A stretch of 34,077 bases of DNA from a virus, in IMG/VR virus record IMGVR_UViG_3300034061_000055, positions 1 through 34,077 of that record, one strand, 5' to 3'. This document shows positions 9,999-29,097 of the stretch, piece by piece. A program made the translations under genes and the position numbers. Position 1 is the first letter of the stretch. Each line of letters opens with the position of its first letter. Under the pieces are notes generated by a model. It had not been told where the DNA came from. It made no database searches and worked only from the letters and a program-made list of their open reading frames with translations.

Positions 9999-10619
9999 TC
10001 ACCTTGCAGTAAGTTTCATTGCCAATGGGACACCAGAGTATTGACCTTCTTCGTCAGACTTGGTAAGGGAGGAGATCGCTCTGTCGTACATAGTTCCCCA
10101 TGTATTGATTCGAGCGTCATTCATTAAATATGGTTCTGCCTCAATCAATGCCGCATAAAGTAAAGCATCAGGTGCGATATTTAAAAACACATTAGATGCG
10201 TTACTGCTTGACAGATATGGAGGAGCAGCAAAGTACAACATTCTCAATGTGTAAACGCCATCAGGAGGAGGCGACAGTAAGAACTCGTTAGCCAGAATTG
10301 TGTAAGACTTAGGAACACCAACTTCTGATGCTCTTGGGTCATTAGACAAAGCAGATGGGCTAGAGTAACTCAATGGCTGAATTGGGTTTGTCAATGCGAC
10401 AAAATCACGAATCTCGATAAAATCAGCAGGTAACTCAACAGTACCATCACCAGATACTGTAGCTGTTGTTACAGATTTGAGCATCTGACGAATACGCAGT
10501 TCTCTACGCAGACGATTCTCAGCAAATGTAATGAAGTCTGGAATCTGGTTAGTCAGATCAGACCTAGCCAGATAACCTGCAATCGAGGTCTTTAAATCAG
10601 AGTAAGTTGCGAAACTCAT
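9999..10619 (-). CDS. Head-tail adaptor (head completion) protein
   Basis: This 206-residue, mostly helical protein starts MSFATYSDLKTSIAGYLAR. The pattern LTNQIPDFITFAENRLRRELRIRQM (about 22-46) is typical of adaptor proteins that dock below the portal in SU10-like and related podoviruses. A later part carries VELPADFIEIRD and ALLYAALIEAEPYL. It overlaps the upstream 101-residue gene by 4 bases. The position after portal, scaffold and capsid fits a connector ring role. Confidence 0.65.
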   Translation of the reverse strand: MSFATYSDLKTSIAGYLARSDLTNQIPDFITFAENRLRRELRIRQMLKSVTTATVSGDGTVELPADFIEIRDFVALTNPIQPLSYSSPSALSNDPRASEVGVPKSYTILANEFLLSPPPDGVYTLRMLYFAAPPYLSSSNASNVFLNIAPDALLYAALIEAEPYLMNDARINTWGTMYDRAISSLTKSDEEGQYSGVPLAMKLTAR

Positions 10620-10921
10620 ACTACTCCTGTCCTAGTGCGCCATGCACGATTCATTGGGTCATTCAACCAAGCAGCAAAACGCTTGTCATCAAGAACAGCA
10701 TAACCACGCATGATGCCTTGTTTGTTTAGATCATCAATAACTGTTAAAGGGATAGACGCAACCTTATTGCCAAACATATGGTCAGACCATCTTGCTCGCT
10801 CATCAAAGGAGTTATATTCCTTTTTGTTCTGCTCAACAATGTCAGTAACATCCTGACGAGTTTGAATAATGATGCCACCTTCGCCATCGGCATGAACAGC
10901 AGTTTGTCTAATGTTTTCCAT
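10616..10921 (-). CDS. Small head-region protein of unknown function
   Basis: A 101-residue soluble protein (MENIRQTAVHADGEGGIII...) with an acidic helical middle (VTDIVEQNKKEYNSFDERARW, about 25-45) and a basic C-terminus (RAWRTRTGVV). It lies between the capsid-downstream HNH gene and the adaptor gene and overlaps the adaptor start by 4 bases, so it belongs to the head assembly block. I do not recognise the family. Confidence 0.7.
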   Translation of the reverse strand: MENIRQTAVHADGEGGIIIQTRQDVTDIVEQNKKEYNSFDERARWSDHMFGNKVASIPLTVIDDLNKQGIMRGYAVLDDKRFAAWLNDPMNRAWRTRTGVV

Positions 10922-10957: not shown

Positions 10958-11527
10958 TTATTTTATGTGTCCCCAAGTTCTTCCAATCCTTACACCTCTT
11001 ACACAACTAGGAGAAACTTCTAGTAGTTTTGCTAGTTTTGCATGAGGAAGATCGCTTGATCTTATAAACCTTACTTTTTCTTCATCTAAGACTGATTTTC
11101 CATTTTCAGTACCTAGTGGAGCAACAACACGCCTTCTTCCTTTTGCAAGCATATCTTGCGTGTTTTCCTTTGGTGTTCCAATCATCAAATGTTCTGGATT
11201 TGTACATTCAGGATTGTCACACTTGTGCATAACAAACATACCTTCTGGAATCTTTTGCTTGTTATGAAGTTCCCAAGAAAATCGATGGGCTAGTGTATAT
11301 CCTTCAGATTTCTTACCAGTTGATATACGACCATATCCATTTGCTTTGTTTCCAACCCATGACCAACAAGATTCTTTTTTTACAATAAATTTCCAGAATC
11401 TTTCTTCAATTGGTGCTTGATTTTTAATTCCATCGTGAGGATTACCATGTCTTCTAACTCTGAGATAGTGCATATTGCACATTCCAAGTTTTGATACTTC
11501 TCGATCACAATTTTCAACAATACACAT
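10958..11527 (-). CDS. Free-standing HNH homing endonuclease downstream of capsid gene
   Basis: The 189-residue protein (ATG at 11527; an upstream in-frame ATG at 11551 lies inside a hairpin) starts MCIVENCDREVSKLGMCNMH, a small Cys/His zinc knuckle. The core HNH segment carries HRFSWELHN, then FVMHKCDNPECTNPEHLM and GTPKENTQDM, as in phage homing nucleases. The C-terminus (KLAKLLEVSPSCVRGVRIGR) looks like a DNA-binding NUMOD-type helix-turn-helix. Its codon use is more A/T-rich than the neighbouring capsid gene, as expected for a mobile insertion. Its GGGGG ribosome site lies in the stem of the terminator upstream. Confidence 0.85.
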   Translation of the reverse strand: MCIVENCDREVSKLGMCNMHYLRVRRHGNPHDGIKNQAPIEERFWKFIVKKESCWSWVGNKANGYGRISTGKKSEGYTLAHRFSWELHNKQKIPEGMFVMHKCDNPECTNPEHLMIGTPKENTQDMLAKGRRRVVAPLGTENGKSVLDEEKVRFIRSSDLPHAKLAKLLEVSPSCVRGVRIGRTWGHIK

Positions 11528-11560
11528 AAAAATGCCCCCATGAATTAACATGAGGGCATT
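11527..11560 (-). terminator. Terminator after capsid gene that also sequesters the HNH ribosome site
   Basis: On the minus strand AATGCCCTCATG pairs with CATGGGGGCATT (12 bp with one G-T wobble, loop TTAATT), followed by TTTATG. Plus-strand arms are 11531-11542 and 11549-11560. It lies about 20 bases after the capsid stop. The same stem contains GGGGG, spaced 7 bases from the HNH start codon, and the ATG itself is part of the short T-run. Confidence 0.8.
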
Positions 11561-26840: not shown

Positions 26841-27561
26841 TTAAGATTCTCCAGGCACTTGCAACCACTCTTGGAACTTGTGCGTTTCCAATGGCTTTAA
26901 TTCTGTCCACTTGTCCGGGAAGTCCATTATAAGTTCGGCATAATCCGGGTGAAAATATTGAGCGCAATCCGGACTCATTCTTACCCACTCCGTTGTAAAA
27001 CTTCCCTTGTATTCTTGGCTTCCATAAAATCTTTTTTTCGCTGCTCCTCTCCACATACTTGTTACTGGAGTTGGTAGCCAACACCCAAATTCGTTCTCTC
27101 CTATGAGGTAATCCAATCGAGTCTGCTCCCAACACTCCCCATTTCGCATCAAACCCCATTTTGGCCAAGTCTCCGAGAACTCGGTCAAGTCCCCTACTAG
27201 TGAGTATTGGTGAGTTTTCCACGAACACGAATCTAGGTTGAACTTCGCAAATGATCCTCGCCATTTCTCTCCACATTCCAGAGGCTTCTCCATCAATTCC
27301 TGCCCCTTTTCCTGCGGAACTAATGTCTGTACATGGAAATCCTCCAGATACAACATCAACAATTTCTCGCCAAGGTTTTCCGTCAAAGGTTTGTACGTCA
27401 TCCCAAATTGGGAAAGGCGGGAGAAGTCCGTCATTTTGTCGGGCGCACAGTACGCTTGCTGGGTAGGCTTCCCATTCGACTGCACAAACTGTTCTCCAAC
27501 CAAGGAGGTGTCCACCAAGGATGCCTCCACCAGCGCCTGCGAAAAGAGCCAACTCATTCAT
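26830..27561 (-). CDS. dcm: DNA C5-cytosine methyltransferase
   Basis: The 243-residue protein shows the C5 series in order: LFAGAGGG (6-13), GGFPCTDIS (73-81, catalytic Cys77), VEN (114-116), LPHRRERIWVLA (151-162) and IGNAQVP (224-230). It is short for the family, with a small target-recognition region between about 165 and 215. It overlaps the replication gene as ATGA and the downstream methyltransferase by 11 bases. The gene carries a second, nearly full-length +1 open frame. Confidence 0.95.
   Translation of the reverse strand: MNELALFAGAGGGILGGHLLGWRTVCAVEWEAYPASVLCARQNDGLLPPFPIWDDVQTFDGKPWREIVDVVSGGFPCTDISSAGKGAGIDGEASGMWREMARIICEVQPRFVFVENSPILTSRGLDRVLGDLAKMGFDAKWGVLGADSIGLPHRRERIWVLATNSSNKYVERSSEKKILWKPRIQGKFYNGVGKNESGLRSIFSPGLCRTYNGLPGQVDRIKAIGNAQVPRVVASAWRILNES
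26841..27557 (-). CDS. Second reading frame inside dcm, candidate overprinted gene
   Basis: A 238-codon open frame, same strand, starting 4 bases after the dcm ATG and ending one base before the ATG of the next methyltransferase (TAAATG). The predicted protein is Trp- and Cys-rich: LDSCSWKTHQYSLVGDL (108-124 region), FSETWPKWGLMRNGECWE, GCWLPTPVTSMWRG and IMDFPDKWTELKPLETHKF. Separately encoded phage proteins with SCSWKT..SETWP..G-MRxGECW, LPTP and FPxxWTxLKPLET motifs appear familiar to me as an unannotated family adjacent to, or fused with, C5 methyltransferases. That memory is not a database result. Expression is unproven. Confidence 0.5.
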   Translation of the reverse strand: MSWLFSQALVEASLVDTSLVGEQFVQSNGKPTQQAYCAPDKMTDFSRLSQFGMTYKPLTENLGEKLLMLYLEDFHVQTLVPQEKGQELMEKPLECGEKWRGSFAKFNLDSCSWKTHQYSLVGDLTEFSETWPKWGLMRNGECWEQTRLDYLIGENEFGCWLPTPVTSMWRGAAKKRFYGSQEYKGSFTTEWVRMSPDCAQYFHPDYAELIMDFPDKWTELKPLETHKFQEWLQVPGES

Positions 27562-28307
27562 ACACCGCCTTTCATTTGTTTAGCAAATTGACGAATGTAG
27601 TCAGGCATAGGTGCAGCCTTCTTTTCGTCAGCTTTAATCTTTTCTAACGCAGGGTCAGGCTCATTCTTTGATGGAACTGTGAGCCTAACAATGTCAGCAG
27701 GATTTTGTTTTGGTGCATGAGTACTTCTCACCCAATTACGCCATGTAGCAAACCAATCTAGCTTCACACCTTTTTGACCAGCTTGGGATATCCAGTAATC
27801 CTTGAATTGGTCAAATGTTTTGGCAGGGTTAAGTTCTGGTCTTTGCTCAACACAAAAGTCTTCCCATTCTTTTGTTAAACAAGAATCAGAAGCGAGGCGT
27901 TTGCCGAGTGTCTTCTTCTCTTGGTTATTGGTTATTGGTTTATGGTTATTGGTTGCTATTGGGGTAGCATTAGGGGGGCTATTAGCCTCCTCATTAGGGG
28001 GTGTTCCCCACCTCTTAGCCGCCCCACGTTTTCCAGCCGCAGAGAACTCTTTGTATTGCTTAATCTCTTTATCAGCCCTTGGATTAACAAAACCTTCTGG
28101 TGTTGAAATAAAGAACTCATTGAGGACAGTCATTACATCTTCCTCATGGTCACGCATACCAATCTGACGAGCAATATCTCTATGCTTTATTGGTTGCTCA
28201 TGCAAGAAATAGAAATCAAGCAAACGTCTGTAAGCCAAGTCCTCGTAATGAGAAAGATGGTGCGTGTGACTCTTGTAGTCACCTATGTGAAACTGATAGT
28301 AGTGCAT
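27558..28307 (-). CDS. DUF1376-type replication protein
   Basis: The 249-residue protein begins with the DUF1376 pattern MHYYQFHIGDYKSHTHHLS and YEDLAYRRLLDFYFLHEQP (about 21-39), a winged-helix of phage initiators. A Gly/Lys-rich linker (KRGAAKRWGTPP) and a disordered Asn/Pro region (110-135) follow, then a DnaT-like C-terminal domain (FDQFKDYWISQAGQKGVKLD, WRNWVRS). It probably loads host helicase at the phage origin, which may lie in its own linker DNA. It precedes dcm in the leftward early operon. Confidence 0.8.
   Translation of the reverse strand: MHYYQFHIGDYKSHTHHLSHYEDLAYRRLLDFYFLHEQPIKHRDIARQIGMRDHEEDVMTVLNEFFISTPEGFVNPRADKEIKQYKEFSAAGKRGAAKRWGTPPNEEANSPPNATPIATNNHKPITNNQEKKTLGKRLASDSCLTKEWEDFCVEQRPELNPAKTFDQFKDYWISQAGQKGVKLDWFATWRNWVRSTHAPKQNPADIVRLTVPSKNEPDPALEKIKADEKKAAPMPDYIRQFAKQMKGGV
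27921..28001. repeat. Iteron-like repeats in the replication gene, candidate origin
   Basis: Plus strand TTGGTTATTG (27921-27930) is followed by GTTATTGG, GGTTATTGG and GGTTGCTATTGG, giving at least four close copies by 27962. CATTAGGGGG occurs twice (27968-27977, 27992-28001). They encode the disordered linker of the initiator. Lambda and related phages place origins in this position of the initiator gene. Confidence 0.5.
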
Positions 28308-28408: not shown

Positions 28409-28441
28409 TGTAAACTTAAAAAAGCCTACTGTAAACTTAAA
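28409..28441. repeat. Two direct repeats of TGTAAACTTAAA, 21 bp apart
   Basis: TGTAAACTTAAA occurs at 28409-28420 and 28430-28441, two helical turns apart, on the same face of DNA. They straddle the stop of the upstream HTH gene. Spacing suggests protein-binding sites, perhaps of the HTH protein controlling the replication gene. Confidence 0.5.
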
Positions 28442-28799
28442 TAAATTGATTGTTGGTAATTTCTTTTTTGACTGGTCTGCCAAGCAATCGTTTAGCTTGT
28501 GCGTTCATCACAGCGTACTCAGCTTTACTAAAGATACCCTTGGCATTGCGAATGTCAAAAGGGTTCAGTAAGCAGCGAGTTTCGTCTTTTGGCCTGTTTT
28601 CAATCAAGTGGTCAGCAAGGGTGTACTTAGCCACTCTGTAGCGACCAACCAGAACCTCCTCTGTGGTTAGATCACCTTTGTAGCGTAGTTTCTTAGCTGT
28701 GGACAGCACAGAGGATTTGTGCATCCCTGTTAAGTCACAAACTTCTTGTGAAGTAAGTGGGCCATTCTGGAGGGCTTTAATTATTGCTTCTTGTGTCAT
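28437..28799 (-). CDS. Helix-turn-helix regulator
   Basis: The 120-residue protein has an N-terminal MTQEAIIKALQNGPLTSQEV (1-20) followed by CDLTGMHKSSVLSTAKKLRY (21-40), a winged-helix/HTH of the kind seen in phage regulators. The C-terminus (KGIFSKAEYAVMNAQAKRLL, then a basic GRPVKKEI) may mediate oligomer contacts. It follows the Cro-like gene through an ATGA overlap. Paired operators downstream may be its targets. It could regulate the lytic switch. Confidence 0.7.
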   Translation of the reverse strand: MTQEAIIKALQNGPLTSQEVCDLTGMHKSSVLSTAKKLRYKGDLTTEEVLVGRYRVAKYTLADHLIENRPKDETRCLLNPFDIRNAKGIFSKAEYAVMNAQAKRLLGRPVKKEITNNQFI

Positions 28800-28948
28800 T
28801 TAAACCATTCTGGTCTGAGTTCTTTGAGTTGATAGATTCGTAACAAGGGGATTGTCTTCCAATGCCAGACAGCCGCCCGTTTGATTCCAAGGATACGAGC
28901 AAGCTCACTCTGTGAGCCAGCAAGTTTGATTGCAGTTTGTTTGTCCAT
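28796..28948 (-). CDS. Cro-like / YdaS-type small repressor
   Basis: The 50-residue protein MDKQTAIKLAGSQSELARIL is followed by GIKRAAVWHWKTIPLL. This is a compact HTH (about 11-31) of the Cro/YdaS kind, with the recognition helix around IKRAAVWHW and a C-terminal beta-like tail (RPEWFK). It is the first leftward gene at the divergent control region. Its promoter predicts a start on the first base of ATG. Its stop overlaps the next start (ATGA). It probably represses one or both early promoters. Confidence 0.85.
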   Translation of the reverse strand: MDKQTAIKLAGSQSELARILGIKRAAVWHWKTIPLLRIYQLKELRPEWFK

Positions 28949-28954
28949 CCCTTG

Positions 28955-28983
28955 AGTATAGCAAGGTAAACAGTTTGTTGAAA
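28955..28983 (-). promoter_or_regulatory. Leftward promoter of the Cro-like gene, predicted leaderless
   Basis: Minus-strand TGC-TATACT (hexamer 28955-28960) is an extended -10 shared with the other two early promoters. The -35 region is weak. Six bases, CAAGGG, separate the hexamer from ATG, so transcription should begin at or beside the start codon. An AAACAGTTT near-palindrome lies in the spacer (28968-28976). Confidence 0.65.
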
Positions 28984-28994
28984 GAAAGATACAC

Positions 28995-29056
28995 TAGGGA
29001 AAATACTTAGTAAATAATTGTTGATCTGTGTGTTTAGTTTGCTATACTGACGTCAG
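28995..29056 (+). promoter_or_regulatory. Rightward early promoter and operator module
   Basis: TTGATC (29021-29026), 16-base spacer and extended TGC-TATACT (29043-29048) form a good sigma-70 promoter. The perfect palindrome CTGACGTCAG (29047-29056) covers the start site and is a likely operator. TAGGGAAA and TAGTAAATAA lie upstream (28995-29017) as in the module at 25.2 kb. Transcription begins about 29055, leaving a 43-base leader with AAGGA before the first gene. Confidence 0.75.
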
Positions 29057-29097
29057 CCCACAACAAATCGTAAATGGGTCTTTTTAAGGAAATCAAG

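What the first reader, a model, noticed from the sequence alone, without database searches (positions are those of the whole stretch)
28946..28983. Predicted leaderless mRNA for the Cro-like repressor
Only six bases (CAAGGG) separate the extended -10 TATACT from the ATG, so transcription should start at the A of ATG. AAGGG is too close to serve as a normal ribosome site. Lambda cI from PRM is a well-known leaderless precedent. Readthrough or an upstream start would add a different translation mode, a possible regulatory switch.
Basis: partly seen in the sequence, partly recalled or inferred. Interest (0 to 1): 0.5.

Follow-up and report, generated by a model that had tools for sequence, protein, structure and literature searches.

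The report
Leaderless cro gene in uncultured phages
A small regulator gene in a probably lytic phage very likely makes a messenger RNA that begins directly at the start codon with no ribosome-binding leader, and this layout is kept in over a hundred related phage sequences; it is a well-supported new example of something already shown in a few other phages.

Summary
On the minus strand TGC-TATACT (28963-28955) is followed by CAAGGG (28954-28949) and ATG (28948-28946) of a 50-aa P22_Cro/YdaS-type repressor, without a Shine-Dalgarno (SD) sequence. It is not chance. Of 150 distinct related genes (window included), 137 fall in groups A-D. In all 137 a -10-like hexamer lies 5-7 nt before the ATG (128 at 6 nt), and none has an SD match of 4 nt or more. 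The bases between take 61 forms, while the -10 core is invariant in the 86 aligned genes of groups A and B. Of 9 more distant family members 8 have an SD and none a -10 there; 4 genes (group E) follow an overlapping upstream gene. Lambda cI and Yersinia phage PY54 cro show the same 6-nt geometry. PY54 cro is in the same Pfam family, and published RACE puts its mRNA start at the AUG. So this is best read as a (near-)leaderless cro (0-2 nt leader): a new member of a known kind, with PY54 cro a closer precedent than lambda cI. No support was found for the readthrough switch. What is new is the depth of conservation in uncultured phages; no CI or integrase was found in the window.

The parts
28796..28948 (-). 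Cro-like repressor gene (50 aa), P22_Cro / YdaS family
   Evidence: Pfam PF14549 37.3 bits (cut-off 30.2), PF15943 36.8 bits (cut-off 30); profile of alignment A1 matches P22 Cro 1rzs at E 2e-7
28955..28963 (-). extended -10 element TGC-TATACT
   Evidence: read; positions -14 G, -12 T, -11 A, -9 A, -7 T invariant in 86 aligned group A and B genes; TG before the hexamer in 109 of 137
28949..28954 (-). discriminator CAAGGG (6 nt), not a conserved ribosome site
   Evidence: 61 distinct sequences at this place in 137 genes, length 6 in 128
28946..28948 (-). ATG start codon and predicted 5' end of the mRNA
   Evidence: ATG in 137 of 137, but ATG was favoured by the start-picking rule and required by the pattern; codon-like variation from codon 2 on
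28967..28981 (.). possible operator, imperfect palindrome TAAACAGTTTGTTGA lying about where a -35 would be
   Evidence: AACA-N3-TGTT in 44 of 96 distinct upstream regions of groups A and B, full TCAACA-N3-TGTTGA in 25 of 96; function inferred
28994..29010 (.). possible second operator, CTAGGGAAAATACTTAG between the divergent promoters
   Evidence: CTA[AG]G-N6/7-CCTA in 68 of 96 distinct upstream regions; function inferred
28437..28799 (-). second gene (120 aa, weak helix-turn-helix hits), start overlaps the cro stop (ATGA): probable translational coupling
   Evidence: coordinates; ATGA at the cro stop in 101 of 109 complete genes of groups A and B, but 4 of 18 in C and 1 of 8 in D
27558..28307 (-). 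replication gene (DUF1376, primosomal-type) further down the same strand
   Evidence: PF07120 68 bits; phrog_3992 E 1.1e-31
29021..29048 (+). divergent promoter TTGATC-N16-TATACT with TG before the -10
29056..29090 (+). leader of the divergent mRNA: 5' hairpin GCCCA...TGGGT followed by SD AAGGA
   Evidence: read; fold (row L001, -5.4 kcal/mol)

Best explanation
The gene is the cro-like first gene of the leftward early operon of a tailed, probably lytic podovirus-type phage. It is transcribed from an extended -10 promoter that abuts the start codon, so the mRNA starts at, or within two bases of, the A of ATG and has no Shine-Dalgarno sequence. Ribosomes are expected to load directly on the 5'-terminal AUG (established mechanism for leaderless mRNA, inferred here). 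The second gene, which overlaps the cro stop, is then reached by translational coupling (inferred). Cro made this way probably represses its own and the divergent promoter through palindromes around them (inferred). Shown by sequence comparison: promoter-to-ATG spacing held nearly constant, no SD, drift in between, coding constraint starting at the ATG. Not shown: the mapped start and actual leaderless translation.
For: 137 of 137 genes of groups A-D (window included) have a -10-like hexamer 5-7 nt before ATG, 0 of 137 have an SD match of 4 nt or more; their flanks fall into 19 clusters at 70% ungapped identity. Per-site variation in 86 aligned genes: five -10 positions (the G of the TG included) invariant, discriminator 0.97-1.89 bits per site, codons 2-15 mean 0.11, 0.26 and 0.46 bits at positions 1, 2 and 3. 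Window: 30 of 46 hand-picked genes have an SD of 4 nt or more, cro has none. Controls: lambda cI and PY54 cro have a -10 at 6 nt and no SD; lambda cro and P22 cro have an SD and no -10 there. PY54 cro start at AUG by RACE, and mutations gathered in its -10 CATAAT. The divergent gene at the same locus has a leader with an SD in 124 of 135 loci examined, so both layouts coexist in one phage.
Against: No start site is mapped for this phage or a close relative. G stands at -1 in 70 of 86 and a purine at -2 in 83 of 86, so the start could be 1-2 nt upstream; 36 of 61 discriminators hold an SD-like purine triplet. Four of 150 genes (group E) have no -10 there; in the two translated, cro follows an overlapping upstream reading frame. 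Five group C genes have only AACAAT. My detector is not a complete classifier: PY54 cI, leaderless in the paper, gave no -10 at its annotated start, and P22 c2 gave 9 nt. It is not specific on single genes either: 6 of the other 45 window genes have a 4-of-6 hexamer at 4-8 nt. In the folded first 60 nt the AUG is open in the best structure, but its G is paired in 0.55 of the ensemble.
Confidence: 0.88

Rival explanations
1. The mRNA starts 1-3 nt upstream of the ATG (on G or A of the discriminator), giving a very short leader rather than none. (A variant of the main reading, which allows 0-2 nt.)
For: Purine-rich discriminator ends (-1 G 70 of 86, -2 A or G 83 of 86); 5-nt spacing in 6 genes and 7-nt in 3.
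Against: The 6-nt spacing in 128 of 137 puts the preferred start, 7 nt after the -10, on the A of ATG (general knowledge of sigma-70 start choice).
Confidence: 0.25
2. A promoter further upstream makes a leadered cro mRNA that is translated without SD (A/U-rich leader, S1-dependent), and TATACT is only an operator half-site.
For: A near-identical TTTGCTATACT stands at the divergent promoter, so a repeated operator motif is conceivable. Other -10 hexamers with 5 or more matches occur at 20 nt (17 genes) and 25 nt (5 genes) from the ATG.
Against: An operator has no reason to stay 5-7 nt from the ATG in 137 of 137; the divergent copy is itself at a -10 position, and in some relatives the divergent -10 reads TACAAT. 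I did not search systematically for a second promoter.
Confidence: 0.06
3. The real start codon lies elsewhere (downstream), so the -10 next to ATG is accidental, as it may be for the HNH gene of this window.
For: For the HNH gene 30 of 40 relatives start at another ATG.
Against: Codon-like variation starts at codon 2; the protein N-terminus aligns with P22 Cro from residue 1 (1-42 to 1-43) and with PY54 Cro from residue 1.
Confidence: 0.02
4. The leaderless start is part of a two-mode switch in which readthrough adds a leader.
For: None found.
Against: The nearest upstream genes are on the other strand; any longer transcript still lacks an SD.
Confidence: 0.03

Closest known systems
cro of Yersinia phage PY54 (PMC4488713; passages, section 3.6)
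   Same: P22_Cro family protein (PF14549, 51.4 bits; 15 of 43 residues identical), one of a divergent pair, -10 exactly 6 nt from ATG, no SD; published RACE places the start at the AUG
   Different: PY54 is temperate with a cI opposite; its Cro binds one operator near cI and, by the authors, does not repress itself. Here no cI was found, and palindromes lie at the cro promoter itself
cI of phage lambda from PRM
   Same: -10 TAGATT, 6 nt, ATG; no SD
   Different: Different protein; in lambda cI is the gene with this layout, while cro has an 8-nt SD match
paaR2 / ydaS-ydaT of prophage CP-933P (PMC8630535, passages)
   Same: YdaS-type Cro analogue followed by a second regulator and a replication gene; one gene of the divergent pair is leaderless by RACE
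   Different: There the CI analogue paaR2 is leaderless, here it is the Cro/YdaS-type gene
-10 motif next to ORFs in Deinococcus-Thermus (PMC12340547, passages)
   Same: -10 a few bp upstream of the ORF drives leaderless mRNA; spacing requirement
   Different: A habit of many genes in a bacterial phylum; here one gene in a phage whose other genes mostly have an SD (30 of 46)

Membership tests
P22_Cro / YdaS family (PF14549, PF15943) | profile match above curated cut-off | tested here: met
   37.3 vs 30.2 bits and 36.8 vs 30 bits
P22_Cro / YdaS family (PF14549, PF15943) | small helix-turn-helix DNA-binding protein that represses early promoters | not testable with these tools
   sequence relation only, profile match to 1rzs; no binding data
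leaderless mRNA gene | promoter -10 placed so that transcription starts at the start codon | tested here: met
   6 nt in the window, 5-7 nt in 137 of 137 genes of groups A-D
leaderless mRNA gene | no Shine-Dalgarno sequence | tested here: met
   0 of 137 with 4 nt or more; 6 group B genes have a 3-nt match, GTG
leaderless mRNA gene | ATG start codon | tested here: met
   137 of 137, with ATG favoured by the picking rule and demanded by the pattern; 9 of 137 have another possible start codon within 8 codons
leaderless mRNA gene | mapped 5' end within 0-5 nt of the AUG | not testable with these tools
   needs RNA
lambda-type CI/Cro switch | divergent CI-type repressor gene opposite cro | tested here: inconclusive
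   none among the window ORFs scanned; not every ORF was scanned, nor each against both libraries
lambda-type CI/Cro switch | cro followed by a second regulator and a replication gene | tested here: inconclusive
   cro - 120-aa protein with only sub-threshold HTH hits - DUF1376 primosomal-type gene
temperate phage | integrase, or relatives in bacterial genomes | tested here: inconclusive
   no integrase among the ORFs scanned; 0 relatives confirmed from 60 candidate stretches in genome contigs

The most novel reading that the evidence does not exclude
A large lineage of lytic phages keeps a CI-less early switch in which the two divergent early mRNAs use opposite translation modes on purpose: the Cro mRNA has no leader at all, while the divergent mRNA has a conserved 5' hairpin and a strong SD. 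Ribosome state early in infection would then set the ratio of repressor to the divergent proteins.
Probability: 0.12. Interest if true: 0.6.

Novelty: new member of a known kind. Interest (0 to 1): 0.38.

Why it matters
Leaderless phage regulators are usually cited from single cases (lambda cI, PY54). Here the layout is seen held across a diverse set of uncultured phages, with drift of the bases between promoter and start codon. That is a sequence-only demonstration of likely leaderlessness and a ready set of natural variants (5, 6 and 7 nt, 61 discriminators) for testing start-site choice and leaderless translation.

Tried and rejected
Rejected: AAGGG as a conserved ribosome site (other letters in relatives). 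Not accepted: a second leaderless gene at the HNH endonuclease 10958-11551 (TGATACAAT-GCCCTC-ATG). 10 of the 40 relatives examined share that layout at the same ATG, the other 30 start at another ATG, many behind a hairpin-like leader (L348 of the 41 loci had too little upstream sequence and was left out). A leaderless start in the window and its 10 nearest relatives is not excluded. Another window gene, 10616-10921, has TAGAAT at 6 nt; not followed up. Not supported: readthrough switch (gene directions, no SD).

Inconclusive: a protein tree to ask whether leaderless cro arose once: 39 rows, 59 columns, 1 of 36 inner branches well supported; fewest label changes 6, one origin not excluded; one further method call in that script failed by name. 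Palindrome enrichment is modest: the best 6+6 palindrome was perfect in 40 of 96 regions against 13 of 96 shuffled once each. The alignment of 15 divergent leaders came out poorly and was not used; no covariation statistics were run on the hairpin. The host was not identified: the best portal relatives are Manatee Spring contigs, then Methylophilales phage Venkman at 56%. Genome contigs gave nothing. One paper search with four terms gave 0 papers. The habitat of the IMG/VR contigs was not looked up.

One search used the window, the 80 loci and 79 (90 distinct); one search used every locus on file (319 records with the window) and skipped genes with under 40 nt upstream, giving 150 distinct. 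Groups were assigned by N-terminal letters (A 93, B 18, C 18, D 8, E 4, outgroup 9). Two pairs in the outgroup (L084/L316, L083/L236) are near-copies. In one search the 46 genes were hand-picked from the ORF list, and one (29096) was entered two bases before its start 29098. In one search the ATGA count mixed in one outgroup gene; it was recounted by group, which is the count given here.

Full report
What is there. The 50-aa ORF at 28796-28948 (minus) matches P22_Cro (37.3 bits, cut-off 30.2) and YdaS (36.8 bits, cut-off 30) in Pfam, and the profile of it and 21 relatives matches solved P22 Cro 1rzs at E 2e-7. Its ATG (28948-28946) is preceded by TGC-TATACT-CAAGGG. The generic scan did not list the site; the TG makes it an extended -10 promoter. 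The window is a 34,077-base virus record with portal, major head protein, scaffold, spanin, holin and endolysin genes. No integrase or CI-type repressor was seen among the ORFs scanned. A scan of bacterial and archaeal genomes confirmed no relative among 60 candidate stretches. The phage is therefore probably lytic (inference).

Comparison. With the window this made 150 distinct genes with at least 40 nt upstream. Groups by N-terminus: A, 93 genes; B, 18; C, 18; D, 8, with a clearly diverged protein; E, 4; outgroup, 9. All 137 of groups A-D have a -10-like hexamer 5-7 nt before the ATG: 128 at 6, 6 at 5, 3 at 7. None has an SD match of 4 nt or more in the right place; 6 group B genes have a 3-nt match. 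Hexamers with 5 or 6 of 6 matches fall at 5-7 nt in 116 of 137; in the region 30-114 nt upstream the rate is 15 in 12,500 positions, and 335 in 12,500 for 4 or more matches. 94 of 137 read TATACT and 109 of 137 have TG before the hexamer; the weakest are five AACAAT. The flanks fall into 19 clusters at 70% ungapped identity. The bases between -10 and ATG take 61 forms, among them GTTTAG, TCTTGG and CAAAAC; 36 of 61 hold an SD-like purine triplet and 25 do not. In 86 aligned group A and B genes (of 92; the rest lack the 6-nt spacing) the -10 positions T, A, A and T and the G of the TG are invariant, while the discriminator has 0.97-1.89 bits per site. Codons 2-15 average 0.11, 0.26 and 0.46 bits at positions 1, 2 and 3, a moderate coding rhythm that begins at this ATG. 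This is what a promoter tied to a start codon, with no leader between, should look like.

Exceptions and outgroups. The four group E genes lack the -10; in the two I translated, cro overlaps the stop of an upstream reading frame, so it is not the first gene there. Nine more distant genes (Pantoea, Pseudomonas, Acinetobacter and Methylophilales phages, Manatee Spring records and IMG/VR contigs; two near-identical pairs among them) have no -10 there, and 8 of 9 have an SD of 5-6 nt. In further named phages with PY54-like Cro proteins the layout is mixed. PY54, P840, phiKO2 and Val-yong3 have a -10-like hexamer at 6 nt and no SD; Salicola CGphi29, AH02 and one Manatee Spring record have an SD; Vibrio K242 and EBPR podovirus 1 are unclear. 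A tree of 39 rows could not resolve how often the trait changed.

Controls. Lambda cI gives TAGATT-6-ATG and no SD; lambda cro and P22 cro give an SD and no -10; PY54 cro gives CATAAT-6-ATG and no SD. PY54 cI, reported leaderless in the paper, was not detected at the start annotated in the record, and P22 c2 gave 9 nt, where the record marks the RNA start 4 nt before the gene. So the detector misses cases. In the window 30 of 46 hand-picked genes have an SD of 4 nt or more, but 6 of the 45 genes other than cro have a 4-of-6 hexamer at 4-8 nt, 2 of them at 6 nt. One of these, the HNH endonuclease 10958-11551, was followed: 10 of 40 relatives share the layout, 30 start elsewhere. One sequence alone can mislead; comparison separates the cases.

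Precedent. [quoted passage not shown] PY54 Cro is a P22_Cro member (51.4 bits), identical to the window protein at 15 of 43 aligned residues. PMC8630535 (passages) shows leaderless paaR2 opposite ydaS in CP-933P and argues that YdaS is a Cro analogue. PMC12340547 (passages) describes the -10 next to ORFs in Deinococcus-Thermus. Paper searches on leaderless phage genes. None of the titles listed there concerns this phage group.

How it most likely works. RNA polymerase recognises the extended -10 and starts at the A of ATG, or within two bases of it; the purine-rich ends of the discriminators leave that open. Ribosomes load on the 5'-terminal AUG. The first 40 nt are weakly structured (-2.5 kcal/mol), and in the first 60 nt the AUG is open in the best structure, though its G pairs in 0.55 of the ensemble. 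The ATGA overlap of cro with the next gene (101 of 109 complete genes of groups A and B, 4 of 18 in C, 1 of 8 in D) suggests that the second gene is read by coupling in A and B. Palindromes about the -35 place and between the promoters (44 and 68 of 96 upstream regions of A and B) are likely Cro operators, with modest enrichment over shuffles. The divergent gene is the opposite case: an SD-led start was found for 124 of 135 loci. 110 of the 115 distinct leaders pass a loose fold criterion (last helix of 3 or more pairs, under -2 kcal/mol), with stems such as GCCCAC/GTGGGT, CCCGC/GCGGG, GCCGT/GCGGT and GCCACAA/TTGTGGT, mostly 3-6 nt before the SD. Steps after transcription start are inferred.

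Verdict. Observation confirmed, leaderless reading strongly supported, regulatory switch by readthrough not supported. New member of a known kind, with unusually deep comparative support.

Noticed in passing
window 29056-29090 (+): Leader of the divergent mRNA has a 5' hairpin right after the predicted start and before the SD; a similar hairpin with different, still pairing stems is predicted in most relatives (110 of 115 leaders by a loose criterion).
   Followed up: partly
window 10958-11551 (-): HNH endonuclease gene: the ORF-list start looks leaderless (TACAAT-6-ATG), but 30 of 40 relatives start at another ATG, many behind a GCCCTC...GGGGGC hairpin and T run, reminiscent of hairpin-guarded homing endonuclease genes (recalled).
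   Followed up: partly
L082 3001-3141 (MW202544.1): The cro-like gene is not annotated in the public record; short antisense ORFs are annotated over it instead. That gene has an SD.
   Followed up: no
window 28994-29010: CTAGGGAAAATACTTAG palindrome between the two promoters; its pattern is found in 68 of 96 upstream regions of relatives.
   Followed up: partly
window 28437-28799 (-): 120-aa protein with weak helix-turn-helix hits stands where CII/YdaT-type regulators stand; best PHROG is Ren-like exclusion protein, E 2.1e-4.
   Followed up: no
L046, L047, L068: These cro-like proteins carry a C-terminal extension of about 40 residues, rich in serine and threonine at its start.
   Followed up: no
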